NCBI GenBank assembly: GCA_017620915.1
Contig: JAFZSK010000078.1
Coordinates: forward strand, 1-41,154
Length of the DNA stretch: 41,154 nt
Reading direction: 5' to 3'
Source: Clostridia bacterium
Lineage (GTDB): Bacteria; Bacillota; Clostridia; UBA1212; UBA1255
Below the pieces are notes generated by a model, which saw only the letters and a list, made by a program, of their open reading frames with translations, was not told the DNA's origin and did no database searches. Below are positions 18,975-34,258 of this stretch, piece after piece (the first letter of the stretch is position 1; each line of letters starts with the position of its first letter). Both the position numbers and the translations under genes were made by a program.

Positions 18975-18986
18975 ACATATTTCAAC

Positions 18987-19015
18987 TGGCAAAGGGCAAA
19001 TGGCAAGGGGTAAAT
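18987..19015. repeat. 29-bp dispersed repeat, copy 1
   Basis: This stretch starts TGGCAAAGGG and contains GCAAGGGG. It matches 33313-33341 at 25 of 29 positions. Here it lies between the stop of the preceding membrane protein gene and the promoter of the NYN gene. The stretch is built of short GGCAAA-type subrepeats. Confidence 0.55.
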
Positions 19016-19028
19016 CGGAAATGGCCTC

Positions 19029-20803: not shown

Positions 20804-22384
20804 CTATTTATGTCCTTTACCCCATATACAACTATTATATAAATTGCAAGAATAATTGCACCCCGTATTTCGAGAATGACTTAAATTACAACCGGCTGTG
20901 CCTTTATAATCTCCATACTTGTTATTGTCTCTTTTTTTATTAGCTGCTTTATTTCCTAAATAAGTACCGGCTAACGACCCAAGAAATGATGAATTAAAGC
21001 TTCCGGTATTCTCTCGTATGACGACACTATTTGATTCTTCTTCTATTTGAGATAATTTAGCTTCAACTTCGGCTTCTACCATAGCCCTGTATTCCGATAC
21101 TATGTCAGAAATAGATCGATCACGGTTATTGTTTAATGCAGTTATAATATAAGTAAGACCTTCGTTACTGCACATATTGCAGTTATGACTGGAATAGCCA
21201 AAGTACTTAACTCCAATATTATCAGGAATATTGTATGTCTGACATATCTTTTCTTTTATTAAATGATAAGATGATATGATCTCATGAATTCGATTTTTTA
21301 AAATATTAGCAGGTGTTTTCCTGTAAATATCATTTATGAGATCATGATAAATAAAAGAGATCTTAGGAAAAGCTTTCTCGACGAGTTCAATATTATAATT
21401 ATGACTTCCGGAAGTAATGAGATCCTTCAGTTGCGTATAATCATTAGATTGGACAGGTCCAAAGGCATTTTTCAAAAAACCGACTTGATAAAACAAACGA
21501 TCATAAAGGATCATCTCTTGGTTGATGTCAGGCATCCAGGTACAAATAAGACTATACACCTGCGCAATTTGAATCATTCTAAACATACTCTTAGACGCAT
21601 TATTGATTGAATGCTCATCAATTTCGATACTTGTCGGCCAAATTGTTGTTTTACCGGCAATAATTGATTCGTAAAAAACGCGATCACTATAATTAGAAAT
21701 GTGATCGTATATTATAAAGTTATCTTCCGTTGAACAGCTAAAACAAACGTTTTCTTTGTTTGAATAACACGGTGCATTCATTAACACGTGGTTTGCGTAT
21801 TCTCTTACTATTCGTGTGCTTAACTCTTCAACTTGTTTTTTATTATTAGAAAAAACAGAGAAAACAGGTATATATCTACCGGGCAGCTGCTTGTCGTCAT
21901 AATATCTAACAGCGATCGATCCATCATTATTTAGTATTTGATATTTTGTGTATACCCCCACATCAAATGTTAAATTAGCGTGTACAACAATATAAGGGTA
22001 TTCAAATTTGTCCTGTCCCATGTTATTAATGCATGTATCTAAATTATCATTTGTTACTAATGTTACAGAGTGATCTCCCCCTATTTTATTTTTTAAATCG
22101 TCGGATATGGCTTTGTTTACGCCCATTAGATCACGCCAATCGTTAATATAATATGAAAAAATATCACGTAACGCCTTCATTTCATATTCAAAGGGCTCGG
22201 CTTTTGTTACTTTTATTCCGGCTTTTTTAAAAATGCTAAATAGTTCATCACCCGGATTTTTGTTTTCGTTATTTATTCTTTCCTCTGAACTCTCAAAAAA
22301 CTGAGCAGGGCAGCCACAATTTGGACAATTTACCGCTCTTCTTGATATTTCTTTTCCACAATCCGGACATTTGATTAACTCCAT
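20804..22384 (-). CDS. Unknown zinc-ribbon protein in AT-rich island
   Basis: The 526-residue protein begins with a zinc ribbon (MELIKCPDCGKE...VNCPNCGCP, four cysteines in CxxC pairs at about 6-27). The main body (about 60-430) resembles nothing I recognise. Near 430 another CxxC (HNCNMCSN) occurs, followed by a helical segment rich in Glu, a glycine-spaced hydrophobic stretch (SFLGSLAGTYLGNKAANKK) that could be a membrane or oligomerisation segment, and a Cys/Asn-rich end. The start at 22384 has AGGT upstream; the frame continues to 22438 without support. It follows the 190-residue gene by 22 bp. Base composition is visibly AT-rich compared with both flanks, which points to transfer. Confidence 0.75.
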   Translation of the reverse strand: MELIKCPDCGKEISRRAVNCPNCGCPAQFFESSEERINNENKNPGDELFSIFKKAGIKVTKAEPFEYEMKALRDIFSYYINDWRDLMGVNKAISDDLKNKIGGDHSVTLVTNDNLDTCINNMGQDKFEYPYIVVHANLTFDVGVYTKYQILNNDGSIAVRYYDDKQLPGRYIPVFSVFSNNKKQVEELSTRIVREYANHVLMNAPCYSNKENVCFSCSTEDNFIIYDHISNYSDRVFYESIIAGKTTIWPTSIEIDEHSINNASKSMFRMIQIAQVYSLICTWMPDINQEMILYDRLFYQVGFLKNAFGPVQSNDYTQLKDLITSGSHNYNIELVEKAFPKISFIYHDLINDIYRKTPANILKNRIHEIISSYHLIKEKICQTYNIPDNIGVKYFGYSSHNCNMCSNEGLTYIITALNNNRDRSISDIVSEYRAMVEAEVEAKLSQIEEESNSVVIRENTGSFNSSFLGSLAGTYLGNKAANKKRDNNKYGDYKGTAGCNLSHSRNTGCNYSCNLYNSCIWGKGHK

Positions 22385-22406
22385 AATAATACCTCGCTGC
22401 TTCAGA

Positions 22407-22979
22407 TTAACTGGTAGTAAACCAATTATAAAAATCAAATTCTAAGTTGGATGTTTTTACATATTGTGATATATCTCCTTGAATCGATAAATATTCATCT
22501 AATGTGTCTATTTTAGTCCATGACGTATATCTTTTACCGTTTAATGCAGATAGTCGTTTTATTATAATACTATCTAAGGGACAATCACATTCCGATAAAT
22601 TAATGTGTATCGTAAAATCACCGTCTTTAATTAATGAGATCACATATAAATACTTGATAGACATATTAACTAATTTTTGGATCGAACCAATCTTAGCACA
22701 ATGAATATTTAATTTGATCATCTCATCAATTAAGATCTTACTGGAAAGACTGCTAAAATGATTATCAATTAAACAATTAAGTGTGTTCTTATAATAGTCA
22801 ACATTACCTGAGTAATTACTATCCCAAAAACGAGACCCGGTTAAAACATCTCGGTTTGCTCTGCTTGTTACAGTCTTGATAACATCGTATCTGTTATTAC
22901 TTAAGATTGCTTTGTGAATCCCCGGAATTGTGCTTTCTAAGCAGAAGTCAATAGATTCTTTTAGCAGCGGTTTGTTCAT
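22407..22979 (-). CDS. Unknown 190-residue protein in AT-rich island
   Basis: No recognisable domain. The product is mixed alpha/beta in character with a central hydrophobic segment (LVNMSIKYLYVISLI, about 103-117), but this is not clearly a membrane helix. No signal peptide. The start ATG at 22979 has GGAG 9 bp upstream and a good promoter at 23027-23055. It is the first gene of a two-gene AT-rich operon with the zinc-ribbon gene. An immunity, toxin-antitoxin or defence pair is conceivable from the two-gene AT-rich layout, but nothing in the sequence shows this. Confidence 0.7.
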   Translation of the reverse strand: MNKPLLKESIDFCLESTIPGIHKAILSNNRYDVIKTVTSRANRDVLTGSRFWDSNYSGNVDYYKNTLNCLIDNHFSSLSSKILIDEMIKLNIHCAKIGSIQKLVNMSIKYLYVISLIKDGDFTIHINLSECDCPLDSIIIKRLSALNGKRYTSWTKIDTLDEYLSIQGDISQYVKTSNLEFDFYNWFTTS

Positions 22980-23148: not shown

Positions 23149-25179
23149 TTACATCGCGAGCATCTGCGCGAATTCCTCTCCCGTTAGAACTTTTATATTT
23201 TTCAGCAACGCCTGCGAAAGCACTTTAGTATCGGGCTCTTTGCCCACGACAAGGCAGTACGTATCGGTTTCGACCGTTTTTGACACGACCGCGCCGATTA
23301 GTTCCAGTATGCTGGCCATCGTGCTCGCGGACATGCCGTTGACGATCCCGGTGAAGGCCACCTTTTTGCCGGTGAAACAGTTGGCCGTAGAGGGAGAAGA
23401 CGCTTCTGTCTTGTTTTCTTCCGCTTCAACAACAACTTCTTCTTTCACTTCTTCTTTTGCTTCTTCTTTCGGCTTCTTATCATTGAAAGAGAGTTCCTTC
23501 AGGAGATCAGTAAACGCCGCGGTCCTGACGACTTCTTTGTACCAGGCGTAGATATTGTCGTTCAGCGCTTTTGAGATCCCCTCGATGCTGTGGAAGTCAA
23601 ACCCGTCATTGACCGCCTGTGTGAATCTGTCCCAGGATCCGTAGAAGTACTCGTCGATCGACCGTGCCGGACCTGCGCTCATCCGCTCAATTCCCATACC
23701 GTAGAGCAGCCTTCCGAGGGTGGTCTTGCGGGCGTCCTCGACACCGTGGATGATCTTTCCGCAGGTGCCTTCGCCGAAGCCGGAGATCGTCAGCATGCGC
23801 TCTTTTTTCTCGCGGAGGTGAAAGATATCCGCATAGCTGCGGATGAGATCGTAGGCCATCAGATCCTCGATTCGTGCCGCGGTGAGCGCTTCGATGTTCA
23901 GACCGTCTTTTTCGCAGAGCCGGGCTATTTTTTGAGAGTTTCTGGCGATGCACTCGAGGTTCGGGCAATACAGATTTCTTGTACCCGCGGCCGATTTTCT
24001 TACCTCGAGGCGCCTTCCGCAGCAGGAGCACCGGTCCGGCAGCATATACGTTCCGCTCTGGGTAAGGTTTTCCGCGACCTGCGGGATGATCATATTGGCT
24101 TTGTAGACCTTTATCTTGTCGCCAATGCCGAACTTGAACTTCTCGAAATTGCCCAGCGAGTGCATATCGGCCCGCTGCACGGTGCCGCCGTCAATGATCA
24201 CCGGATCGAATTCGGCGATGATCGCGACCAGGCCGGTACGGGTCGTTGCCAGCGTTGCCCCGCGGAAAACGGTCTCGTAAAGATTGTCGGTCCATTTGAG
24301 CGCAAGCATGCGGTTTTCGTGGTGGGACGTGGCACCCAGGCTTTTCCCGAAGGCAACGTCGTTATACTCGGCAATGATCCCGTCGACGGGATAGACATAC
24401 GTTTCGGGGTCAAAGGCATTAATTGCCGAAAGCAGTTTCTTTCCGTCCCAGGTCGCCTTAGTTTGTTCAAACTGGACAACATTGAAGCCCTGGCGAATGA
24501 GGAATTCCAGCTGCTGGACTTTTGTTTTTCGGTTGTCGTCGGGCATGATCAATTCAAACGCGATAAAGTCGATGCGTTGAAGCGTATTCACATCGGGCTC
24601 CAGCGCTCTGACTGCGCCCGCGGCAATATTTCTCGGATGACCTCTGTCTGCGCCGGGGGAGACCGCGTTGAAATCCGCCCAGGACATGACGCCCTCGCCG
24701 CGCACTTCGAAAGGCTGCCGGCATTCAACGGTCTGGGGAACGTTTCTCAGATGGGCAACGGTGCGGGTGACGTCCTCGCCGATAATACCGTTGTCGCCGC
24801 GGGTGATGGCTTTCTCAAATTTGCCCTCATTATAGCGCAGAACAAGGGTAAGACCGTCCAGCTTCCAGGAAAGCAGCGTATCCGATATCTGAGCGAAGGC
24901 GACAACGTCTTCAGGGTCTTTCGTTTTTTTGGCGGAAAGCATCGGCTTTGTATGTTTGACTTTCTCCAGTCCGTTTTTTACCGAGCCTCCGGTCCGGGAT
25001 GTAGGGGAAGTGGAGAAAACGATGCCCGTCAGCTTTTCAAGTTCGCTGAGTTCGGCAAAGAGCTCATCGTACTCGCGGTCGGACAACGTCGGGGCGTCAT
25101 CGCCGAAATACTCTTCATTCGCCTTGTTGATGAGTGTTATCAGTTCCTTCATTCTTTGAACGTTGTTTTTTCCTTCCAT
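23149..25179 (-). CDS. ligA: Divergent NAD-dependent DNA ligase (LigA type)
   Basis: NAD-dependent ligases seal nicks through a lysyl-AMP intermediate. The 676-residue protein has the full layout: Ia domain (1-60), adenylation domain with KLDG at 106-109 (K106 nucleophile) and TRGDN, an OB fold (about 305-375), a Cys4 zinc finger (C384, C387, C405, C410), a HhH region and a C-terminal BRCT domain (about 595-676). Unusual points: in the NAD-binding Ia motif the His that follows the conserved Tyr (H23 in E. coli) is Phe25, while Y24, D34, Y37 and D38 remain. The canonical PMLSL is PMLSA, and an acidic EEVKEEVVVEAEEN-type linker precedes the BRCT. It is the last gene of a six-gene array, 39 bp after its neighbour with an AAAGGAG site. 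It is probably an accessory ligase. Confidence 0.9.
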   Translation of the reverse strand: MEGKNNVQRMKELITLINKANEEYFGDDAPTLSDREYDELFAELSELEKLTGIVFSTSPTSRTGGSVKNGLEKVKHTKPMLSAKKTKDPEDVVAFAQISDTLLSWKLDGLTLVLRYNEGKFEKAITRGDNGIIGEDVTRTVAHLRNVPQTVECRQPFEVRGEGVMSWADFNAVSPGADRGHPRNIAAGAVRALEPDVNTLQRIDFIAFELIMPDDNRKTKVQQLEFLIRQGFNVVQFEQTKATWDGKKLLSAINAFDPETYVYPVDGIIAEYNDVAFGKSLGATSHHENRMLALKWTDNLYETVFRGATLATTRTGLVAIIAEFDPVIIDGGTVQRADMHSLGNFEKFKFGIGDKIKVYKANMIIPQVAENLTQSGTYMLPDRCSCCGRRLEVRKSAAGTRNLYCPNLECIARNSQKIARLCEKDGLNIEALTAARIEDLMAYDLIRSYADIFHLREKKERMLTISGFGEGTCGKIIHGVEDARKTTLGRLLYGMGIERMSAGPARSIDEYFYGSWDRFTQAVNDGFDFHSIEGISKALNDNIYAWYKEVVRTAAFTDLLKELSFNDKKPKEEAKEEVKEEVVVEAEENKTEASSPSTANCFTGKKVAFTGIVNGMSASTMASILELIGAVVSKTVETDTYCLVVGKEPDTKVLSQALLKNIKVLTGEEFAQMLAM

Positions 25180-25218
25180 TGCCGCGCTCCTTTCTTTGTT
25201 AGTGCCGCTGCCGGATCA

Positions 25219-25836
25219 TCAGTTTGCCAGTTCCCTCAGATCGTGTTTGGCGACAAACTGTTTGAACCAATCGTCCACGATTTTTTTAACGTTCGACCGA
25301 CTGTAATCGACCCTTCCGTTGACCGACCAGACACACAGTTTGCCCAGTTCCCTGGTCTTGTGGGCCGTATTGTCCGCGTGCATCTTAAATATTTCACCGC
25401 ATATTTTGATCTTATCTTCACCCATGAGATGGGCCTCAGCCGCGTTGTCTATCACCAGCAGCGGCACAACATCTTTTTTCTTCGATTTGAAATGTTCGTC
25501 AGTGTACATATTTCGGAACATCGGATCGTAATAATCGGCTCTGGTCCAGTTGGAATATGTTGAATTCACACTGTGAAACGGAATAGTGACACCGATGACA
25601 TGGATCGTGCCTTCCCGGAACGGATCGGTCGGCCGTGTCAACCGGGTAAAATTCAGATACACCGAGATCAGGTCCGTATCCGCCAGAATGCCGGCGTACT
25701 GTTGTTTCCGGAGCGTTTCGGATTCGAAACGCTCCAGCTTCATCTGTTCGATCATCCGGGTCATTTTCTCCAGGTCATTTTCGTCAAGATCCCTGATAAG
25801 TGTATTCATTTTTTTCTCGAAATCTGCTTTTTTCAT
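25219..25836 (-). CDS. Unknown 205-residue protein between vWA-peptidase and ligase genes
   Basis: I recognise no family. The N-terminal 45 residues are strongly charged and helical (KKMNTLIRDLDENDLEKMTRMIEQMKLE), probably a coiled coil. The rest looks alpha/beta, with TIHVIGVTIPFHS, VVPLLVIDNAAEAHLMGE and a late VWSVNGRVDYSRSNVKKIVDDWF. There is no signal peptide or membrane helix. The start has AGGAGA 6 bp upstream and lies 12 bp after the peptidase gene, so it belongs to the array. It may be an adaptor or substrate of the MoxR/vWA pair, which is inference from position only. Confidence 0.78.
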   Translation of the reverse strand: MKKADFEKKMNTLIRDLDENDLEKMTRMIEQMKLERFESETLRKQQYAGILADTDLISVYLNFTRLTRPTDPFREGTIHVIGVTIPFHSVNSTYSNWTRADYYDPMFRNMYTDEHFKSKKKDVVPLLVIDNAAEAHLMGEDKIKICGEIFKMHADNTAHKTRELGKLCVWSVNGRVDYSRSNVKKIVDDWFKQFVAKHDLRELAN

Positions 25837-25848
25837 TTAGATCTCCTG

Positions 25849-27096
25849 TCAGCTATTGTCTGCAAATCTTGCAACTTTTCCCCAGGGCGGCTCCGCATCG
25901 CTGCTGCTGAGCAGCCAGAGGACCGGAGTGCCGAGCGCCGCGGCCTCTTCCGGAAAAATACTGTATCCGTCGGTGATTATCACGATGCTGGCGATCTCCA
26001 TCTCGTCCTGCAGTTCTTCCAGCATCCGGAAAATGATCTTAAAGGACGTTCCGCCGCCGCCGACGGGCTTTATTGCCAATACGTCATCAATGCTTTCAAA
26101 GCGCTCCGGCTTTGTGATTTGGTTGTCGAAAAAGCTCAGCCAGCCGGTCAGATGGCCTTCAAACTGTTCGATCGCCCCGCAGAGCTCGCTGAACGCCGCC
26201 GTTACCTGCGTATCGTTTAACGAGCCGGAGGTGTCAATGCAGAACCAGATGTTCTTCGGATCCTCGTCCTTTTCGTTAAAATCGGGTAGCAGGAAGGCGC
26301 TGTCCTGCATTCTCCGGTCGGGCGGCTCGAATGAATAATCCGTAATTTCTTCCTGAACGAAATTCTGCAGCACTTCTCTCCAGTCGGTTTTCGGCTTCGT
26401 GAGCTCCGTGAGCAGTCTTTCCGCAAAAAGCGGGATGTTTCCGCGGCCGGCGTTTCCTTTTCTGGCCGCGATATGAGCGGCGATCTCGGTTGCGTCTATT
26501 ATTCTTTGGAGCCGGACCTGTTCCGCTTCGTTTTCCGAGTCATTGCCGGAGTCAACGCCGCCGGATGAATAATCCCAGTAAGTATGGTCGTCAAAGCCGG
26601 CCCCGCCGTTCTGATCCGCATTTGCTTCAGCCTTACTTTCCGATTCGTCGAGGAGCATTTTATATACTTCTTCGGCGGAATAGAGATAACCTTCCTCTCC
26701 CGTTGGCGTCGTGTGGATACCGGGGCCGTATTTTTGCAGGGTGATCGCATCCGGATCGAAGTTTGACGAATAAAGAATGTTGGAGTTTACGACAATATCG
26801 CACGCTTTGTTGAACCGGTCAAAATCATAGTCCGCTTTTGTCCGGGAGCAATGGTTGAGGGCAATGTGCAGTACCTCATGCATCAGTACGAATTCCAGTT
26901 CCTTGTCTGACAGTTCTTCCAAAAAATCCGGACATATCACGATCCTCTCGCCGTCGGTGTAGGCGGTCTCGCACATCGGGTCAACAGAGAACCGCACGTG
27001 GAAAAGCAATACGGCGTAGAAGGACCGGTCCTTCATGAGCGAAAGCCGCGCCTTTTGAAGTCTTTTTATTATCCTTACGGTTTCTTCACTGTACAT
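25849..27096 (-). CDS. Metallopeptidase-like (DUF2201-type) protein with C-terminal vWA domain
   Basis: The 415-residue protein joins an N-terminal putative zinc metallopeptidase domain (HEVLHIALNH: HExxH at 73-77 and a third His at 82) to a C-terminal vWA-like domain (about 280-415) with an intact MIDAS: DTSGS at 288-292, T350 in GGGGTS and D376 in ITDG. An acidic Asp/Asn/Gly linker (about 150-190) separates them. Proteins with this plan are usually encoded beside MoxR AAA+ ATPases and occur in phages, plasmids and conflict systems. Here the gene overlaps the MoxR gene by 11 bp (start ATG at 27096). The pair probably acts as a metal-dependent, ATP-driven remodelling or cleavage unit. The target is unknown. 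Confidence 0.88.
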   Translation of the reverse strand: MYSEETVRIIKRLQKARLSLMKDRSFYAVLLFHVRFSVDPMCETAYTDGERIVICPDFLEELSDKELEFVLMHEVLHIALNHCSRTKADYDFDRFNKACDIVVNSNILYSSNFDPDAITLQKYGPGIHTTPTGEEGYLYSAEEVYKMLLDESESKAEANADQNGGAGFDDHTYWDYSSGGVDSGNDSENEAEQVRLQRIIDATEIAAHIAARKGNAGRGNIPLFAERLLTELTKPKTDWREVLQNFVQEEITDYSFEPPDRRMQDSAFLLPDFNEKDEDPKNIWFCIDTSGSLNDTQVTAAFSELCGAIEQFEGHLTGWLSFFDNQITKPERFESIDDVLAIKPVGGGGTSFKIIFRMLEELQDEMEIASIVIITDGYSIFPEEAAALGTPVLWLLSSSDAEPPWGKVARFADNS

Positions 27097-28207
27097 TGCC
27101 GTTCCTCAGAGTGGCCCTGTTCATCGAAAACTCGGCGTATTCCGGCACCGTTCTTAAGAAGGATACGTAGTTTTTGGCTATATCAGAGTAATTTTGGATG
27201 AGGAGCTCGCCAAAATCCGCCGGCAGGCGTTTGGCGTAGGAAAGGGAATTTCCGATAGCGACCGCATCGTATTTGTGCTCCGACGCGTATGTCGTCATGG
27301 ATGAGACCACCGCGTACAGCACATCCGGGTCTTTGGGCACTTCTGTCTCTCTTCCGTCGAAGATCTTATCGATATCGGGCATTTCGCCAAAAGACCGGCA
27401 CCAGAATTTAAACTCCGTCGCGTAGCCGACGCCGATCAGGCCCGAGATCAAAGGGCATACCTTTTCAACGTCCTCGCTGACCGTGTTCAGAATATTGCTC
27501 ACCATTTCCCAGGAACGCGGTGTGGGGAAGGCCAGGTCATCGCGGGTGGCGTCGAAACCGAACAATCTGTCGCGCCGGAATGAGAGATAGCCGAGTACCT
27601 TCCGGTTTATTCCGGCGCCGATCGCCCACTTTTTCCAGGACTCGAAACTGCCGTTGACTTCAATATGCAGGAGACGGTTGGCGAGCGCCTTCGGCATCTT
27701 TACGGAGACGGACTTGTCGGTTATTCGGTTGCCTGCCGCGATGACGATGCAGTTGTCCGGGAGCTTGTGCTCGCCGACGACCCGGTCCAGAGTGATCTGG
27801 TAGGCCGCCGCCTGTACCGACTGGGGCGCCGCGGAGATCTCGTCCAGGAACAGTATGTTGACAACGTCATCGCTCTCGTCCATCTGAAAGATCTTCGGCT
27901 TCAGCCAGACCGCGAGGGTCTTGTCGTCGTTGGCCACCGGGATGCCCCGCAGATCGATGGGATTGAAAAGGAGCAGTCTTACATCGGTCACGTTAACTTT
28001 TTTGCCGGTCGCGATCTCTATTTCCCGCGCGATCTGCCTTACGCCCTGGGACTTTCCCACGCCGGGAGCGCCCCACAGCATGACGGAAGGGAGGACCTTG
28101 GGCGAGAGCCCGTTTTCGATCACGCGGATGTAGGATCCGGCAAGCAGATCAACAAATTCATTAACAGACATTACGGGCATATTCGCGAGTGTTTCAATTT
28201 GTTCCAT
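27086..28207 (-). CDS. MoxR-family AAA+ ATPase
   Basis: MoxR ATPases are chaperone-like AAA+ proteins that work with vWA partners. The product (373 residues from the ATG at 28207) has Walker A GAPGVGKS at about 46-53, Walker B ILFLDEIS at about 118-125, sensor 1 IAAGN near 157-160, and an arginine-finger region ALANRLLHIEV near 174-184. It follows the helicase gene with a one-base stop/start overlap (TGATG); an in-frame TTG one codon earlier is possible. The next gene overlaps by 11 bp. Such tight coupling suggests stoichiometric production with the peptidase-vWA protein. CobS-like ATPases of large phages are another related group. Confidence 0.92.
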   Translation of the reverse strand: MEQIETLANMPVMSVNEFVDLLAGSYIRVIENGLSPKVLPSVMLWGAPGVGKSQGVRQIAREIEIATGKKVNVTDVRLLLFNPIDLRGIPVANDDKTLAVWLKPKIFQMDESDDVVNILFLDEISAAPQSVQAAAYQITLDRVVGEHKLPDNCIVIAAGNRITDKSVSVKMPKALANRLLHIEVNGSFESWKKWAIGAGINRKVLGYLSFRRDRLFGFDATRDDLAFPTPRSWEMVSNILNTVSEDVEKVCPLISGLIGVGYATEFKFWCRSFGEMPDIDKIFDGRETEVPKDPDVLYAVVSSMTTYASEHKYDAVAIGNSLSYAKRLPADFGELLIQNYSDIAKNYVSFLRTVPEYAEFSMNRATLRNGNVQ

Positions 28208-31200
28208 CAAACTACCCCCAGTTCTTCATTAAGGCTGTCCAGCTCGCTGCTGAGGCTGGATATTTCTTTCATATACCCGCCCTCTTCGTTGGCGAGTTCC
28301 TTTTCGAGGAAGACCAGACGGGATTCCAAAGTTGAAAGTCTGTCTTCGTACTCCGCCCGGAGTTCGCAGAGCCGGTCAAGGAAATTGTTCAGTCTCTTGG
28401 TGATACCCGCGGAGGATTCGATCTCGAGATAGTAGGTATTGTTCCCGGCGATCTGAACGTAGTGCTTTTCTTTCAGCCTTTTAACGGTCTCATCCGGCTC
28501 TGAGGCCAGGGCCGGTTTGATCTCCGCGGCCAGCATATTCGGGGGGACAAAGATATCAAAGCCCAGATAGTTGAGAATGAATACCTTGACCGAGCTGTAC
28601 CGGTTGTCGATGACCGCGGTATAGATTCGGTCTCGGATCTCTTTCTGCTGTATGTAGGTCAGTGCTTCATATCCGCCGCGGTTCGCTTCGTATACCGCGA
28701 TATCCTTTTTACAGTTTTTGATCCGGGTCTTCCAGTCGGAGATTTTTGCGGGGATAGAAAGCATTTCAAGCCGTTTTTTCTCCCTTTCCGCGCAATAGTC
28801 GTTGTGCAGGATTCGGAACTTGTTGAGTTCGTTGCTGACTTCCACGCGGCGCTTGATCTTGGGATTGCCCACCGCCAGCGCTTTAACTTCGGCATAGTTG
28901 AGGACCGCGTCGTCAATATCCGTACCGTCTCGCATTGTCGCCTGACCGGACATTATCTGGCTGATAAAGCGCTGCTTCATCTCGAGCAGCTGCCAGGAAT
29001 AGGCGTCAAAGCTGGCTTTTGTGATGTAGCGGAATATCCGGACTTTCTCGTTTTCGTTGCCCTGACGGAGTATCCGGCCTTCTCTCTGGATCATGTCCGA
29101 CGGCCTCCAGGGTACGTCGAGGTGGTGGATGGCGATCAATTTGTTTTGAACGTTCATTCCGTGACCCATCTTGGCGGTGGAGCCCACGAGTACTGCCAGT
29201 TCGCCCCGGTTCATTGCGTCAAACATGGCTTTGCGCTCGCTGTCGGTCGAGTAATCGTGTACGAACGCGACCTCATTTGACGGCATGCCCATGGCGACCA
29301 GCAGCTTTTTCAGTTCGTCGTACAGATTAAAACCGGCCTTGGGCGTGGAAATGTCGCAGAACACGAGCTGAGTGCTCTTCCGGCCGCGGGTCTCGTTGTA
29401 GACCTCTACGACTTTTTCCGCGCAGCGGACCACTTTTGATTCCGGGTCCATTCCGAAAGCCATATCGATGAGCCGCATGTCCAGCGCCGCTTTTCTGCCG
29501 TCGGAAGTGACTTTAAGCATGTTGTCTTCCTTGATCGTCACCCGCTTCTGGCGGATATCGTCGGCGCGGCCGGATATCTCCCGGAGGTAGTCCCGGAACG
29601 CTTCGGTACCGGGGATCATTTCGTCGGTGTAGCCCTCGATCTCCGGAATGCCGATGCCTTTGTCCACCCGGTGAAAATCGATTATTGACGACAATGTCGC
29701 GGTAAGCTCGGGTATGTTGCAGAACCGTCCGAACCGTGTGACGAGATTGTAACTGTTGGTGTCAATATCGATTTCAAAATCGGACACTTTTTCGGCATAC
29801 ATGCCCGCCCAGGCGTCAAAGGTGGTGATTCCCTGGAATTCCAGTTCGCCTTCCTGAAGGTATTTCTGCATTGCGAAAATATCAGAAAGCGAGTTGGTCA
29901 CCGGCGTGCCCGTGGCGAATACCACGCGGCCGCCGTCGTTCATTCTCTGCACGCAGTGGACCTTGTCCATCATGCTGGTTCCGTGTTTTGCCGCGGAATT
30001 GGCGATGCCTCTTACGCGGCTGATCCGGGTATCGAGTTCAATGTTTTTGTAGTTGTGCGCCTCGTCCAGGAACAGCGTATTTATGCCGAGGTCGTCAAAT
30101 GAGATATCCTTGGGTTTTACTTTCTTGTAATCCTTCTGTATCTTGTCGATGGAATCCTGAATTTCCACGATCCGCTTTTCGAGCCGGCCTTTGCTGACGT
30201 ATGAATTCATCGCTTTTGTAAGCGTGTCGATTCTTTCCTTGTACAGTTTCTCGTAGAATTTATCGGAGAGCGCGAGCATGTCGAAGCAGCTGTAAGTCAT
30301 GAGGATGGCGTCATGATCTTCGTTCATGATCTTAAATAAAGTCTCGCTTCTGTTCTTCGGATCGAAATTCTTGTTCGTGACGACAAGCAGCTCCGCCTGC
30401 GGGTACATATGCCGGAATATCCGCTCCCACTGGGCAATTATATTGTTAGGAATTACATAGAGATTCTTTTTCGACTTTCCGAGCCGCCGCAGTTCCATGC
30501 CCGCGGCGATCATCGTATAGGTCTTGCCCGCGCCGACATCATGGGCAAGGAGCGTATTCGGCGACATGATTATACGTTCGACGGCGTTTTTCTGGTAGTC
30601 GTAAAGCTGAATATCCGGGCTGAGCCCCGGCAGTTTAAGGAATGAACCGTCAAAAACCCGGACCCGGTTGTTCCCGTACCGGCGGCAATACTGCGACTGC
30701 AGCCTCTTTTTGCGCGTTTCATCCGACCAGACCCACTTTTGAAAAGTCTCGATCATGTATTTCTGCTTTTCGAGCAGCTTCAGTGTTTCGTCCTGGTCAA
30801 GGATCCGGACTTTGCATTCTATGTCGTGCGGGTCTTTCGGTTTGGTGGCGGTCAGCGTCTTCATATTGAGGGTGTTCTCAAGGATATGAAGCATGTTCAT
30901 ATAGTCGGTACCGTAAGTGCGGGTATTGACTTCTTTGAACATATCGCGGTATGAACTTTTCTGAAGCCTTGCCTTTTCGGGCACCTCCCAGGTGCCGGTG
31001 AATTCGTTGTGCCTTACCGCGTACTTCGGGTCGCTGCAGTGGCCGTAGTATTCTTTGGCTTCGCGGGTGTTGATATTGCCGCCGAACGCCATATACGCGA
31101 TGAAATCGTCAATGACATCCGTCGGCACCCACGGCGAACCCAGCGTGATATATATGTCCTCCACCGGAATGTCCGGCTGGACAATGCTCTCCAGTGCGTC

Positions 31201-32133
31201 CACGTTCGCCTGAAAATAGCCGTTGTATTTTTTGTTCTCTTCCTTTGCGACCTTCAGTTTGTGGTTGAGGTTGCCGGAAAGGTATTCATTGGCGGTTTCC
31301 CAGCCTTTGTAAAAAACTTCGTTCCAGTGGAGGGGGTTCTGATAGATCGAACCGCGAAGCTCCGAGATGACGGCTTCCATTGTGTTTCCGGAGACCTGGG
31401 AGATGAACTCGATGTCGACCATGCCCAGCATTTCGAGAGACATGATGAGGCCGTCGCCGATGGATTCGCACTTTATTTCGACCCGCTCGTCGCCTTCAAA
31501 GCTGTTGACGAAATCGACGGGCAGGTCCATTCGGGTGACGCTTTCGATGTGTTCAAGGCGCCGCTTTTCTCTGCGGGCCTCGGCTCTTCTGGCCGCAGCT
31601 TCCCGTCTTTTTATCTCTTTTTCGAGGGCAATACGCCGCTTTTCAGCCTCTTCCTCCAGTTTCTTGCGCTTCGCTCTTTCGCGCATATCCTGACCGGCCA
31701 CGCGCAGCGTCTCCAGCGCGACGTCAAGATCTTCTACCGTCAGTGAGTCGCTGATCTCCTTGACGCTTTCGAAGAACCGGTCGATCTTATCGTTCCGCAT
31801 TTTGGCGGCGGCGACTACATCTATGAACTTGCACTGCGAAAACTGAGTCGTTGTGCGCTCGTTGTCGTATCCTTTTTTCGCCAGGACCTTATAATAGTAC
31901 GAAGTGCCTTCGGTCAGATAAAAGTCAATGAGCGGCGCGGTGCTCTCCCTAAAGAGAGAATACCCGTCGGTTTTGTTTTCGGAGCGGTAGATCTCATACC
32001 CTTCCGCGGCTTCAACGGGAGTGATCCTGAACGTGGCCAGGCTGCCGCTGACGCTGTATTGAAAGTCCGGTATTATTGCCTCGAAACTCAGAACTTCGTT
32101 TTCGGTATTCGATTCTGCCGTTGGTTTTTTCAT
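28207..32133 (-). CDS. SNF2-type DEAD/DEAH helicase with N-terminal FN3-like and coiled-coil regions
   Basis: The 1308-residue protein has an FN3-like module (about 25-107; GYEIYRSENKTDGYSLF is characteristic), an EK/R-rich coiled coil (about 150-197), a linker related to the large methylase-helicase proteins of integrative conjugative elements (about 260-500), and a superfamily-2 helicase: Walker A HDVGAGKT (about 531-538), DEAH (690-693), ATGTPVTNS (740-748), GSTAKMGHGMNVQ (984-996), and motif VI QREGRILRQGN (1016-1026). A C-terminal coiled coil (about 1230-1308) closes it. The methylase half usual in the conjugative-element relatives is missing. It starts 17 bp after the radical SAM gene and overlaps the MoxR gene. 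Predicted role: ATP-driven DNA remodelling; no nuclease motif is seen. Confidence 0.9.
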   Translation of the reverse strand: MKKPTAESNTENEVLSFEAIIPDFQYSVSGSLATFRITPVEAAEGYEIYRSENKTDGYSLFRESTAPLIDFYLTEGTSYYYKVLAKKGYDNERTTTQFSQCKFIDVVAAAKMRNDKIDRFFESVKEISDSLTVEDLDVALETLRVAGQDMRERAKRKKLEEEAEKRRIALEKEIKRREAAARRAEARREKRRLEHIESVTRMDLPVDFVNSFEGDERVEIKCESIGDGLIMSLEMLGMVDIEFISQVSGNTMEAVISELRGSIYQNPLHWNEVFYKGWETANEYLSGNLNHKLKVAKEENKKYNGYFQANVDALESIVQPDIPVEDIYITLGSPWVPTDVIDDFIAYMAFGGNINTREAKEYYGHCSDPKYAVRHNEFTGTWEVPEKARLQKSSYRDMFKEVNTRTYGTDYMNMLHILENTLNMKTLTATKPKDPHDIECKVRILDQDETLKLLEKQKYMIETFQKWVWSDETRKKRLQSQYCRRYGNNRVRVFDGSFLKLPGLSPDIQLYDYQKNAVERIIMSPNTLLAHDVGAGKTYTMIAAGMELRRLGKSKKNLYVIPNNIIAQWERIFRHMYPQAELLVVTNKNFDPKNRSETLFKIMNEDHDAILMTYSCFDMLALSDKFYEKLYKERIDTLTKAMNSYVSKGRLEKRIVEIQDSIDKIQKDYKKVKPKDISFDDLGINTLFLDEAHNYKNIELDTRISRVRGIANSAAKHGTSMMDKVHCVQRMNDGGRVVFATGTPVTNSLSDIFAMQKYLQEGELEFQGITTFDAWAGMYAEKVSDFEIDIDTNSYNLVTRFGRFCNIPELTATLSSIIDFHRVDKGIGIPEIEGYTDEMIPGTEAFRDYLREISGRADDIRQKRVTIKEDNMLKVTSDGRKAALDMRLIDMAFGMDPESKVVRCAEKVVEVYNETRGRKSTQLVFCDISTPKAGFNLYDELKKLLVAMGMPSNEVAFVHDYSTDSERKAMFDAMNRGELAVLVGSTAKMGHGMNVQNKLIAIHHLDVPWRPSDMIQREGRILRQGNENEKVRIFRYITKASFDAYSWQLLEMKQRFISQIMSGQATMRDGTDIDDAVLNYAEVKALAVGNPKIKRRVEVSNELNKFRILHNDYCAEREKKRLEMLSIPAKISDWKTRIKNCKKDIAVYEANRGGYEALTYIQQKEIRDRIYTAVIDNRYSSVKVFILNYLGFDIFVPPNMLAAEIKPALASEPDETVKRLKEKHYVQIAGNNTYYLEIESSAGITKRLNNFLDRLCELRAEYEDRLSTLESRLVFLEKELANEEGGYMKEISSLSSELDSLNEELGVV

Positions 32134-32150
32134 GATGGTGCCTTTTTGTT

Positions 32151-33143
32151 CTATTTTGTCAATTGTAACATATTTTCTTTGATAAAAAAAGCGGAGTTGA
32201 TCCGGTTCAGGATCCGCTTTTTGTCGGTGCTCCAGAGCGGGGCAACGAGCAGTTTGCGCGGCGCGTCGCCCGTGACGCGGTGGACGGCAACGCCGGGGGG
32301 CAGCAATGCTATTGCCTTCCGCACGATATAGATGTATTCGTCCATTTCCAGCGTGCGGAACGCGCCGTTTTCATACAGATCTGCCAGGTCCGTGCCGCGG
32401 AGGACGTGGAGGAGCTGAAATTTGACGCCGTTGACGCCGCGCTCCGCTACATATTTTACCGATTCCAGCATCATTTCGGGGGTTTCGAGGGAGAGGCGCG
32501 GAGCGTTGTCCCCGGCGGTCTCCGCAGCGGTCTGAACAGGGGTCTGTTCCCCGTATGGGAGGCCGAAAATCAGGTGCGTGATCACGCGGAGGCCGCGGGC
32601 GCGCAGCTGCCGGACCGCCTCGTCATACTCGCCGAGGTCAAAGCCGCGCCGGATGAACGCCGCGGTGGCGGGATGGATCGTCTGCAGGCCGAGTTCAACG
32701 TATACCGGCGCTTTTTGAGCCAGCCGGCTGAGCATGCCCAGGATGTCGGGGCCGAGGCAGTCGGGGCGGGTGGCAATCGACAGCGCCACCACCGACGGAT
32801 CCCTCAGCGCGGCGATGAACAACGGCTCCAGATACGAGACCGGCGCGTATGTATTGGTATAATTTTGGAAATAGGCAATAAACCCGGCATTTTCGATATT
32901 GATCTTCTGCGCAAGGCGCGCTTTGGCGCGGTCCAGCTCTTCCTGTCTGCCGGTGAACCGCTCGGAAAACTCGCCGCTGCCTGCCTGGGAACAGAAGATG
33001 CAGCCGCGCGTGCCTTTGGTGCCGTCCCGGGTGGGGCAGGTGCAGCCGATGTCCAGCGCGAGCTTGTATATTTTGCGGCCGAATTCCGCGCGCAGCGCTG
33101 CGCCGGCGGTGAGAAACGGTACGGTTTGCGGCGTGTTGTCCAC
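32151..33143 (-). CDS. TIGR01212-type (YhcC/YtqA-like) radical SAM protein
   Basis: The product (330 residues from GTG 33143) has the family signature KLALDIGCTCPTRDGTKGTRGCIFC with the three cluster cysteines (CTCPTRDGTKGTRGCIFC layout), then a radical SAM core including SIATRPDCL and the ELGLQTIHP segment and a C-terminal GVAVHRVTGDAPR motif. The function of this family is unknown; an RNA-modification or anaerobic sulfur role has been suggested. The GTG start is chosen for its CCGGAGGC site 8 bp upstream; the frame extends to 33173 through a promoter-like region. It lies 17 bp upstream of the helicase gene, so the whole six-gene run could share its promoter. It could also be an unrelated neighbour. 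Confidence 0.88.
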   Translation of the reverse strand: MDNTPQTVPFLTAGAALRAEFGRKIYKLALDIGCTCPTRDGTKGTRGCIFCSQAGSGEFSERFTGRQEELDRAKARLAQKINIENAGFIAYFQNYTNTYAPVSYLEPLFIAALRDPSVVALSIATRPDCLGPDILGMLSRLAQKAPVYVELGLQTIHPATAAFIRRGFDLGEYDEAVRQLRARGLRVITHLIFGLPYGEQTPVQTAAETAGDNAPRLSLETPEMMLESVKYVAERGVNGVKFQLLHVLRGTDLADLYENGAFRTLEMDEYIYIVRKAIALLPPGVAVHRVTGDAPRKLLVAPLWSTDKKRILNRINSAFFIKENMLQLTK

Positions 33144-33164: not shown

Positions 33165-33193
33165 ATTATACACTAATATCTATGAATATGCTA
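33165..33193 (-). promoter_or_regulatory. Promoter of the radical SAM/helicase array
   Basis: On the minus strand the -10 TATAAT is at 33170-33165 with TGTG upstream, and a weak -35 (TAGCAT, 33193-33188) is 17 bp away. Transcription would begin close to the ribosome site, giving a very short leader. It overlaps a divergent promoter reading the other way. Confidence 0.45.
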
Positions 33194-33197
33194 TAAT
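33192..33197 (+). promoter_or_regulatory. Extended -10 promoter for the IMPase-like gene
   Basis: TGCTATAAT (TG at 33189-33190, TATAAT at 33192-33197) faces away from the minus-strand promoter above. No good -35 is visible. Transcription from here would give a leader of about 145 nt containing the hairpin at 33225-33293. Confidence 0.45.
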
Positions 33198-33224
33198 TGA
33201 CGGCGCCGGTTCAAATGTCAAATG

Positions 33225-33293
33225 CTGCGAACCGAGTGATGGCGCCGCATTTCTGGGGGAACGAAATGCTTTGCCATTCACTCGGCTTCGCAG
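33225..33293 (+). other. 69-nt imperfect hairpin in the leader of the IMPase-like gene
   Basis: CTGCGAACCGAGTGATGGC (33225-33243) pairs with the stretch 33273-33293 with two single-base bulges. Inside it GCATTTC (33247-33253) pairs with GAAATGC (33263-33269), leaving a loop that contains TGGGGGAAC. It could be a structured mRNA leader or a miniature inverted-repeat insertion. It matches no riboswitch I know. Confidence 0.55.
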
Positions 33294-33312
33294 GGCAGGA
33301 AAAGGTGGAAAA

Positions 33313-33341
33313 TGGCAAAGGGAGAATTGCAAGGGGAAAAT
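33313..33341. repeat. 29-bp dispersed repeat, copy 2
   Basis: Matches 18987-19015 at 25 of 29 positions. It overlaps the ribosome-binding region of the IMPase-like gene: the GCAAGGGGA part serves as its Shine-Dalgarno site. Confidence 0.55.
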
Positions 33342-33346
33342 GGCAA

Positions 33347-34258
33347 ATGAAGGTAGATAATATATTGACCGCGGACATGCGGGAAGCGTTCAAAGAAGTG
33401 ATGGTGCGGGCGGGGGAGCTGGTATTGTCCGCGCGCCGGGGCGGCAACGCGCTCGACGTGGAGACCAAAAGCGGCAGCGCCAACTACGTGACGGAGTACG
33501 ACAAGGCGGTGCAGGAGCTGCTGGAGCGGGAGCTTTACGCGCTGTTGCCCGGGGCATCGTTCCTGGCGGAAGAGGAAACCGATTTTAAGCCGGGGGACAG
33601 ACCCGCGTTTGAACAGGGGGACAGACCCGTGTTTAAAACGGGGGACGGGTTTACGTTCGTGATCGACCCCATCGACGGCACCACGAATTTCATCACCGAC
33701 TACCGCGTGTCGGTGATCTCGGTGGGGCTGATGTACCGCGGCGAGGCAGTGTGGGGCGGCGTGCTGCAGCCGTACACGGGCGAGTTCTTTTCGGCGCTGA
33801 AGGGCGGCGGGGCGTACTCGGAATGCGGGTTGTGCGGACGCGGGGGCGACCGGGCGCTCGTTCGGCTTAATACGGGGGACAGACCACTGAAAAAGGCGGT
33901 AATTATATTCGGCACGGCGCCGTACTACAGGGAGACGCTGGGCCGGTACAGCATGGCGGCGGCGACCGAACTTCTGATGCGCGCCGGCGACCTGCGGCGG
34001 AGCGGATCGGCGGCGCTGGATCTGTGCATGTTGGCCGCGGGCCGGGCGGACGGGTTTTTCGAGTTGAGATTGTCCCCGTGGGACTACGCGGCGGGGGGCC
34101 TGATCCTGGAGGAGGCGGGCGGCGTTGTCACCGATATCAACGGAAAGAAACTGCCCGTCAGCAGGGGAGCGGTGAGCTCCGTCGTGGCGGGCAATCCGGA
34201 TATTTATTCGCAAATTTTGCCGGTCGTAAGGGGCGCGGTGCCGGAGGGTGTGATCTGA
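33347..34258 (+). CDS. Inositol monophosphatase family protein with inserted octapeptide repeats
   Basis: This Mg-dependent phosphatase family includes inositol-1-phosphatase and related sugar or nucleotide phosphatases. The 303-residue protein has the metal-binding residues: E75-E76-E77, D107-P-I-D110-G-T112 and late WDYAAGGLILEEAGG. Between the first glutamates and DPIDGT sit three tandem octapeptides, GDRPAFEQ, GDRPVFKT and GDGFTFVI (about 83-106), encoded by a 24-bp DNA repeat. Another unit (GDRPLKK) lies near residue 178. Relatives have a shorter spacer here, so these are insertions that kept the frame. The start at 33347 uses AGGGGA upstream; the frame back to 33197 crosses the leader hairpin. 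Activity may survive because the inserts fall in loops. Confidence 0.9.
   Translation: MKVDNILTADMREAFKEVMVRAGELVLSARRGGNALDVETKSGSANYVTEYDKAVQELLERELYALLPGASFLAEEETDFKPGDRPAFEQGDRPVFKTGDGFTFVIDPIDGTTNFITDYRVSVISVGLMYRGEAVWGGVLQPYTGEFFSALKGGGAYSECGLCGRGGDRALVRLNTGDRPLKKAVIIFGTAPYYRETLGRYSMAAATELLMRAGDLRRSGSAALDLCMLAAGRADGFFELRLSPWDYAAGGLILEEAGGVVTDINGKKLPVSRGAVSSVVAGNPDIYSQILPVVRGAVPEGVI
33592..33650. repeat. GGGGGACAGACCC repeat, three tandem 24-bp units inside a CDS
   Basis: Units start at 33592, 33616 and 33640. The first two read GGGGGACAGACCCG(C/T)GTTT; the third is diverged (GGGGGACGGGTTT). All lie in frame in the IMPase-like gene and encode octapeptides. The same sequence recurs at 33874, 34792-34849, 36742 and 37062. 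Confidence 0.85.
33874..33889. repeat. GGGGGACAGACC repeat, single unit inside the same CDS
   Basis: GGGGGACAGACCACTG encodes TGDRPL in the same reading frame as the upstream tandem units, about 70 codons further into the IMPase-like gene. Confidence 0.7.

What the first reader, a model, noticed from the sequence alone, without database searches (positions are those of the whole stretch)
23149..33143. Six-gene array: radical SAM, ICE-type helicase, MoxR, peptidase-vWA, unknown protein, divergent LigA
Seen: six minus-strand genes with overlaps or gaps of 11-bp overlap, 1-bp overlap, 12, 17 and 39 bp, likely one transcript. Known: MoxR plus vWA pairs with a metallopeptidase head occur in phages and in proposed bacterial conflict systems (the MoxR-vWA 'ternary systems' of Aravind and colleagues), and the helicase belongs to the type carried by conjugative elements. 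Inference: a DNA-processing or defence module, or a domesticated element core, in which the ATPase and vWA-peptidase regulate a helicase and ligase. I know of no described system with this combination. No relaxase, integrase or secretion genes are in the window.
Basis: partly seen in the sequence, partly recalled or inferred. Interest (0 to 1): 0.75.

Follow-up and report, generated by a model that had tools for sequence, protein, structure and literature searches.

The report
Helicase–AAA+–protease operon with ligase
Three of the six genes form a compact, repeatedly transferred bacterial operon that joins a DNA-tracking motor to a protein-pulling ring and a protease, with a spare DNA ligase in one branch; I found no description of this combination, and its job (perhaps defence against mobile DNA) is untested.

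Summary
The six genes, strands and overlaps are as described. They are not one system. The radical SAM gene is the tRNA-modification enzyme YtqA/MnmL, which sister genomes carry without the rest. The real unit is three genes: a SNF2 helicase of the DarB type without a methylase, a MoxR AAA+ ATPase, and a DUF2201 metallopeptidase–VWA protein. In 80 relatives from genome contigs the order is helicase–MoxR–peptidase; all three ORFs were called in 70, all on one strand, usually overlapping by 4 and 14–17 bp. Flanking genes vary. Helicase and MoxR trees each group the triads; the MoxR tree puts them beside jumbo-phage MoxRs. Distribution is patchy (1 of 7 genomes in the genus, 8 of 391 in the class) and mixed across families and phyla, so it spreads horizontally. 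LigA is a true accessory: triad-linked ligases form one clade (100/100) apart from the host's own LigA and sit in one helicase/MoxR subclade. The 205-aa gene has no detectable relative. It is none of the four published MoxR–vWA ternary classes and no PADLOC system. Best explanation (about 0.5): a mobile conflict module in which the helicase tracks DNA and the MoxR/MIDAS-peptidase pulls and cleaves proteins on it.

The parts
28207..32133 (-). Core gene 1: 1308-aa SNF2-family helicase/translocase of the DarB-like type, no methylase domain; long charged N-terminus
   Evidence: Pfam SNF2-rel_dom and Helicase_C, PHROG 10089 DarB-like (1.1e-234); AF2 core pLDDT 80 matches Snf2/Mot1/RapA/ZorD motors; motif II DE[AS]H, TGTP and motif VI present in 69 of 69 relatives
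27086..28210 (-). Core gene 2: MoxR AAA+ ATPase, 374 aa (start TTG 28210 or ATG 28207)
   Evidence: Pfam AAA_3, PHROG 1297; Walker A, sensor-1 and ANR/SNR motif in 77 of 77, Walker B in 74 of 77 relatives
25849..27096 (-). Core gene 3: DUF2201 protein, zincin metallopeptidase head plus VWA (MIDAS) domain, 415 aa
   Evidence: Pfam DUF2201_N and DUF2201; HExxH in 67 of 71 and MIDAS in 65 of 71; AF2 pLDDT 85.6, Foldseek top MDN1 MIDAS-UBL, selecase also matched
25219..25836 (-). 205-aa protein without known relatives, only in this copy
   Evidence: No hit in Pfam, PHROGs, NCBIfam, PADLOC, phages, PDB sequences, or the 80 triad loci; codon score supports a real gene
23149..25179 (-). Accessory gene: triad-linked NAD+-dependent DNA ligase (LigA2), 676 aa
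   Evidence: Adenylation, OB and BRCT domains; KLDG motif and four-Cys Zn motif; own genome has a separate housekeeping LigA at 35%; triad-linked ligase clade 100/100
32151..33143 (-). Neighbour, not part of the module: radical SAM tRNA-modification enzyme YtqA/MnmL (longest ORF to 33173)
   Evidence: TIGR01212 278 bits against cut-off 180; present in sister genomes without the cassette, head to head with the phosphatase gene in two
33193..33221 (-). Promoter-like site upstream of ytqA that could transcribe the whole array
   Evidence: Consensus match 10 of 12 only
20804..22979 (-). AT-rich foreign gene pair downstream (544-aa zinc-ribbon protein; 190-aa protein), relation to the module uncertain
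   Evidence: GC about 32% against about 55% around it; a 190-aa relative (34%) lies by a triad in L135, a weak one (29%) in L111

Best explanation
A horizontally spreading three-gene conflict module with an optional ligase. Shown: the helicase, MoxR and metallopeptidase-VWA genes form a fixed, overlapping operon that moves between genomes; the LigA of one subclade is inherited with it; the motor, AAA+, protease, MIDAS and ligase motifs are intact in the window copy. Inferred: the SNF2 translocase loads on and tracks along double-stranded DNA, most likely invading or abnormally replicating DNA. The MIDAS domain, held by the MoxR ring, grips a protein on that DNA (or the helicase itself). MoxR ATP hydrolysis pulls it, and the zincin head cuts it, clearing or destroying essential protein-DNA complexes of a phage or plasmid. 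In the LigA branch the dedicated ligase seals nicks left behind. The 205-aa gene is a local add-on of unknown role.
For: Order, strand and overlaps conserved while flanking genes are not. Helicase, MoxR and LigA trees agree on the ligase-bearing branch. Patchy distribution, with Lachnospiraceae, Oscillospiraceae, Erysipelotrichaceae and Eggerthellaceae mixed in the MoxR tree. Insertion at unrelated chromosomal sites, e.g. beside pdxS/pdxT-like genes in L173. Catalytic motifs conserved. Helicase model resembles SNF2 DNA translocases including ZorD. Peptidase-VWA model matches the Midasin MIDAS-UBL pulling domain, NorQD and selecase. WYL regulators, common in defence loci, recur within 10 kb in 21 of 80 loci.
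Against: No experiment. Known defence genes are few among neighbours, and I had no background rate for WYL genes. No variable effector domain. A few copies lack HExxH or MIDAS. Two MoxR-peptidase loci nested in the clade, L171 and L172, have no adjacent helicase. Nothing shows that the three proteins bind each other.
Confidence: 0.5

Rival explanations
1. A mobile but non-immune repair module: the helicase finds protein-blocked or crosslinked DNA, MoxR-MIDAS pulls the blocking protein, the zincin degrades it (as SPRTN/Wss1 do), and the ligase reseals.
For: Combination of dsDNA motor, AAA+ pull, zincin and ligase; peptidase domain also scores weakly to SprT and to the minimal peptidase selecase; neighbours in two loci include TROVE-VWA, one also with the repair ligase RtcB.
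Against: Patchy presence (1 of 7 in the genus, 8 of 391 in the class) is unusual for repair; the SprT score is below Pfam's cut-off; no damage regulator seen.
Confidence: 0.2
2. Cargo or relic of a mobile element: the triad serves element transfer or establishment, protecting incoming DNA as DarB does, and chromosomal copies are remnants.
For: The helicase family is typical of phages and ICEs; L005 carries serine integrases and an FtsK-like protein beside the triad; MoxR sister group is jumbo phages.
Against: 30 of 32 viral contigs with the helicase family lack MoxR-peptidase; chromosomal triads lack a conserved set of mobile genes and sit between ordinary genes.
Confidence: 0.15
3. A chaperone system: MoxR plus peptidase-VWA only assembles or processes the helicase or a phage-like protein complex, as proposed for jumbo-phage virion assembly.
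For: The homologous pair in jumbo phages was proposed to assist virion assembly and processing (PMC7824862); MoxR-VWA pairs such as NorQD and RavA-ViaA are chaperones.
Against: No virion genes near the chromosomal triads examined; fixed coupling is to a DNA motor.
Confidence: 0.1
4. Chance adjacency: the six genes have unrelated functions.
For: True for the radical SAM gene and possible for the 205-aa gene.
Against: Triad order and overlaps kept across the loci; ligase congruent with helicase and MoxR trees.
Confidence: 0.03

Closest known systems
MoxR-metallopeptidase-vWA pair of jumbo and N4-like phages (PMC7824862; PHROG 1297/1314)
   Same: Same two protein families, adjacent, with the metallopeptidase N-terminal to the vWA; MoxR trees place jumbo-phage copies as sister to the triads
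   Different: No SNF2 helicase partner at the phage loci examined; proposed role there is virion assembly
MoxR-vWA ternary conflict systems: VMAP, iSTAND, FtsH, beta-propeller classes (PMC7159879)
   Same: MoxR AAA+ plus vWA co-chaperone plus a third conserved component
   Different: Third component is a DarB-type SNF2 helicase; peptidase is N-terminal, not a variable C-terminal effector; found mainly in gut and rumen Clostridia
DarB-like SNF2 helicases of polyvalent proteins and ICEs (PMC5512222)
   Same: Helicase core about 35-40% identical and alignable over about 900 residues
   Different: Stand-alone 1050-1360 aa, no methylase, separate clade (SH-aLRT 100), partnered by MoxR-peptidase
Zorya ZorD, DISARM DrmD and other SNF2 defence helicases
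   Same: SNF2 motor fold
   Different: Only generic motor-level scores; none of their partner genes present
Housekeeping LigA
   Same: Full NAD+-ligase domain set and catalytic KLDG
   Different: Separate, divergent clade; the host keeps its own LigA elsewhere

Membership tests
MoxR-vWA ternary conflict systems (Kaur et al. 2020) | MoxR AAA+ with intact ring motifs | tested here: met
   Walker A, sensor-1 and ANR/SNR motif in 77 of 77, Walker B in 74 of 77
MoxR-vWA ternary conflict systems (Kaur et al. 2020) | vWA partner with MIDAS, encoded next to MoxR | tested here: met
MoxR-vWA ternary conflict systems (Kaur et al. 2020) | Third component is VMAP, inactive STAND, FtsH, or a beta-propeller fused to the vWA | tested here: not met
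   Third component is an SNF2 helicase by Pfam, PHROGs and structure; class definitions read; no beta-propeller in the vWA protein
Jumbo-phage MoxR / metallopeptidase-vWA pair | Metallopeptidase N-terminal to vWA, adjacent MoxR | tested here: met
Jumbo-phage MoxR / metallopeptidase-vWA pair | Located in a phage genome | tested here: not met
   Window carries recA, ftsK and other housekeeping genes; no virion genes found
DarB-like polyvalent protein | SNF2 helicase of the DarB family | tested here: met
   PHROG 10089 1.1e-234; full-length phage structural matches
DarB-like polyvalent protein | Fused adenine methylase or other polyvalent domains | tested here: not met
   Only helicase domains in the 1308 aa
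Known anti-phage systems in PADLOC 2.0.0 | Specific match of core components | tested here: not met
   No hit for the peptidase, only weak partial hits for MoxR, generic SNF2 hits for the helicase; 2023 library
Anti-phage defence system | Protection against phage or plasmid | not testable with these tools
   Needs an experiment
Integrative conjugative element core | Relaxase, T4SS and integrase nearby | tested here: not met
   None in window proteins scanned
NAD+-dependent DNA ligase (LigA) | Adenylation domain with KxDG, OB fold, Zn finger, BRCT | tested here: met
YtqA/MnmL (radical SAM gene) | NCBIfam TIGR01212 above cut-off | tested here: met
   278 against 180 bits

The most novel reading that the evidence does not exclude
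An undescribed fifth class of MoxR-vWA ternary system in which a DarB-type dsDNA translocase is the sensor and a MIDAS-linked metalloprotease the effector: DNA-guided proteolysis used as immunity against mobile DNA, with a ligase branch that repairs the host.
Probability: 0.35. Interest if true: 0.82.

Novelty: new variant of a known kind. Interest (0 to 1): 0.62.

Why it matters
It is a sharply bounded three-gene system seen in many gut and rumen Clostridia, with a clear evolutionary link between a phage protein-remodelling pair and a phage or ICE DNA motor. If it is DNA-guided proteolysis it would be a new way to attack or rescue DNA, and a compact one to test. It also gives a functional context to a MoxR–peptidase pair found in hundreds of phage records whose role is only conjectured, and whose PHROG label 'HNH endonuclease' appears to be wrong.

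Tried and rejected
Radical SAM as part of the module: rejected. Six-gene unit: rejected; LigA directly follows the peptidase in only 3 of the 80 loci (L082, L084, L091), plus the window, and the 205-aa gene occurs nowhere else. LigA as a duplicate of the host ligase: rejected by tree. ICE or prophage core: rejected for this window; two viral contigs carry triads (L005/L214, L240). Membership in published ternary classes: rejected on the third component. tRNA-site insertion: no consistent site; only a few of 42 loci have a tRNA near the triad. Exact empty site: not found, because neither flank is syntenic in the sister genomes held. Relatives of the 205-aa protein: none in relatives (L002 hit lies in a threonyl-tRNA synthetase-like gene), viral contigs, phages or PDB. 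A Pfam call failed on wrong coordinates and was rerun. VIA-align on the peptidase-VWA model mainly returned integrin-type VWA domains and said little of the peptidase half.
Full report
Observation. The six minus-strand ORFs are present at the stated coordinates with the stated gaps. Family searches confirm five identities: YtqA/MnmL-type radical SAM, DarB-like SNF2 helicase, MoxR AAA+, DUF2201 metallopeptidase-VWA and LigA. The 205-aa gene matches nothing, but its codon statistics are those of a real gene. The surrounding 41 kb is ordinary chromosome (recA, recX, miaB-like, rnc, ftsK). The only compositional oddity next to the array is an AT-rich two-gene island at 20.8–23.0 kb.

What belongs together. 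I asked which of the six genes travel together. (i) Radical SAM: in two sister-genus genomes ytqA sits head to head with the same inositol-phosphatase-type gene without the array, and what follows ytqA differs between sister genomes. It is a host gene 17 bp upstream of the cassette. The helicase family was called in 78, MoxR in 76 and peptidase-VWA in 76. All three were called in 70. The other loci are contig ends or ones where a longer antisense ORF displaced the true gene in my ORF picker. In those 70 the genes are always co-directional, and in all but one (L131) the order is helicase–MoxR–peptidase. The helicase–MoxR junction is exactly −4 bp in 42, and the MoxR–peptidase junction is −14 or −17 bp in 52. 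The genes on either side differ in family, strand and distance. So the unit has sharp edges: three genes. The query came from triad members, so the sample leans towards that clade. However, the helicase and peptidase were not used for selection, and a separate helicase-profile scan of viral contigs found MoxR–peptidase beside only the two triad-type helicases and none of the other 30.

(iii) LigA follows the peptidase directly in L082, L084 and L091, and G022 carries a close relative on a contig edge. These and the window ligase form one clade with 100/100 support, far from the housekeeping LigA that the same genome also has. MoxR of the ligase-bearing triads is one clade (100/99), and their helicases too (SH-aLRT 100). 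L085, in the same clade, is cut off before a ligase could be seen, and G022's ligase is on another contig from its helicase. LigA was therefore gained once and co-inherited. (iv) The 205-aa gene is found only here.

Distribution. One of 7 genomes of the genus has this MoxR clade, 3 of 31 of the order, 8 of 391 of the class (two of the eight without an adjacent helicase), and only the window's own genome in a 398-genome sample of the phylum. In the MoxR tree Lachnospiraceae, Oscillospiraceae, Erysipelotrichaceae and one Actinomycetota (Eggerthellaceae) are intermixed, and the sister group is MoxR of large phages (the bootstrap had not fully settled). The 17 non-window genomes with helicase-family hits in the phylum sample carry mainly very long ICE-type proteins, and none has this MoxR.

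Anatomy and mechanism. The helicase keeps motif II (DE[AS]H), TGTP and motif VI in all 69 near-complete copies, and MoxR its ring motifs. The peptidase keeps HExxH in 67 of 71 and the MIDAS in 65 of 71. The predicted helicase core (pLDDT 80) matches SNF2 dsDNA translocases, among them Mot1, which strips protein from DNA, RapA and ZorD, and phage methylase-helicases over nearly its full length. The predicted peptidase-VWA (pLDDT 86) matches the Midasin MIDAS–UBL complex first, then NorQD and, for the head, selecase. From the established biology of these families (MIDAS gripping and AAA+ pulling in Mdn1/Rea1; MoxR–VWA remodelling in NorQD, PMC13036017 and PMC8837202, abstracts seen), the most likely mechanism is: the translocase tracks dsDNA, the MIDAS-peptidase grips a DNA-bound protein or the helicase, MoxR pulls, and the zincin cleaves; in one branch LigA reseals. 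Mobility, conflict-type distribution and frequent WYL regulators (21 of 80 loci, within 10 kb, not background-corrected) favour anti-mobile-element function over plain repair, but this step is inference.

Comparison with the known. Kaur et al. define four MoxR–vWA ternary classes by the third component (VMAP, iSTAND, FtsH, beta-propeller; PMC7159879). This module has the core pair but an SNF2 third component, so it works like a ternary system without being a member of any of the four. The pair alone is described in jumbo phages and proposed to assist virion assembly (PMC7824862). The helicase family is described in polyvalent proteins (PMC5512222), there coupled to a methylase. PADLOC holds no specific match. 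Full-text searches of the open library found no paper joining these parts; subscription papers and newer defence catalogues were not searched.

Verdict. The finding is best restated as a new, well-bounded, horizontally moving helicase–MoxR–metallopeptidase-VWA operon with a clade-specific ligase.

Noticed in passing
window 20804-22979: AT-rich (about 32% GC) pair of genes, a 544-aa zinc-ribbon protein and a 190-aa protein; relatives of the 190-aa protein lie on the triad loci L135 (34%) and L111 (29%).
   Followed up: partly
window 33212-33350 and 18984-19026: Short dispersed repeat, rich in AAATGGCAAA-like units, with dozens of partial matches across the own and sister genomes.
   Followed up: no
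L004 (G000:C49) and sister genomes L186-L191: The genus's housekeeping LigA groups with LigAs of contigs labelled phage and not with LigA of other genera of its own family, suggesting replacement of an essential gene by transfer; the phage-labelled contigs are unverified scaffolds.
   Followed up: partly
PHROG 1314; Erwinia phage vB_EamP-S6 gp036 (L176): This phage family is labelled 'HNH endonuclease' but matches the DUF2201 metallopeptidase-VWA protein over its full length; the label is probably wrong for many phage genes.
   Followed up: partly
L018/L019 (G023) and L005: Triads flanked by a TROVE/DUF2828-VWA protein, in G023 also by RtcB and an FtsH-like protease: a possible RNA-repair neighbourhood.
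   Followed up: partly
L082, L091, L104: DUF262 (GmrSD-like) looking genes, judged by eye only, on the same contigs as the triad, with WYL regulators in L082 and L091.
   Followed up: no
L091, L129, L137, L154 (HExxH) and L094, L125, L128, L129, L140, L161 (MIDAS): Peptidase-VWA copies lacking the HExxH or MIDAS signature, so one activity may be dispensable in some branches.
   Followed up: no
L013-L015 (same genus): A second, distant MoxR-DUF2201 pair (about 33% identity, no helicase) in sister genomes.
   Followed up: partly
L020 1580-2110: In G022 a separate 176-aa ORF upstream repeats the N-terminal domain of the helicase (fibronectin-III-like by eye).
   Followed up: no
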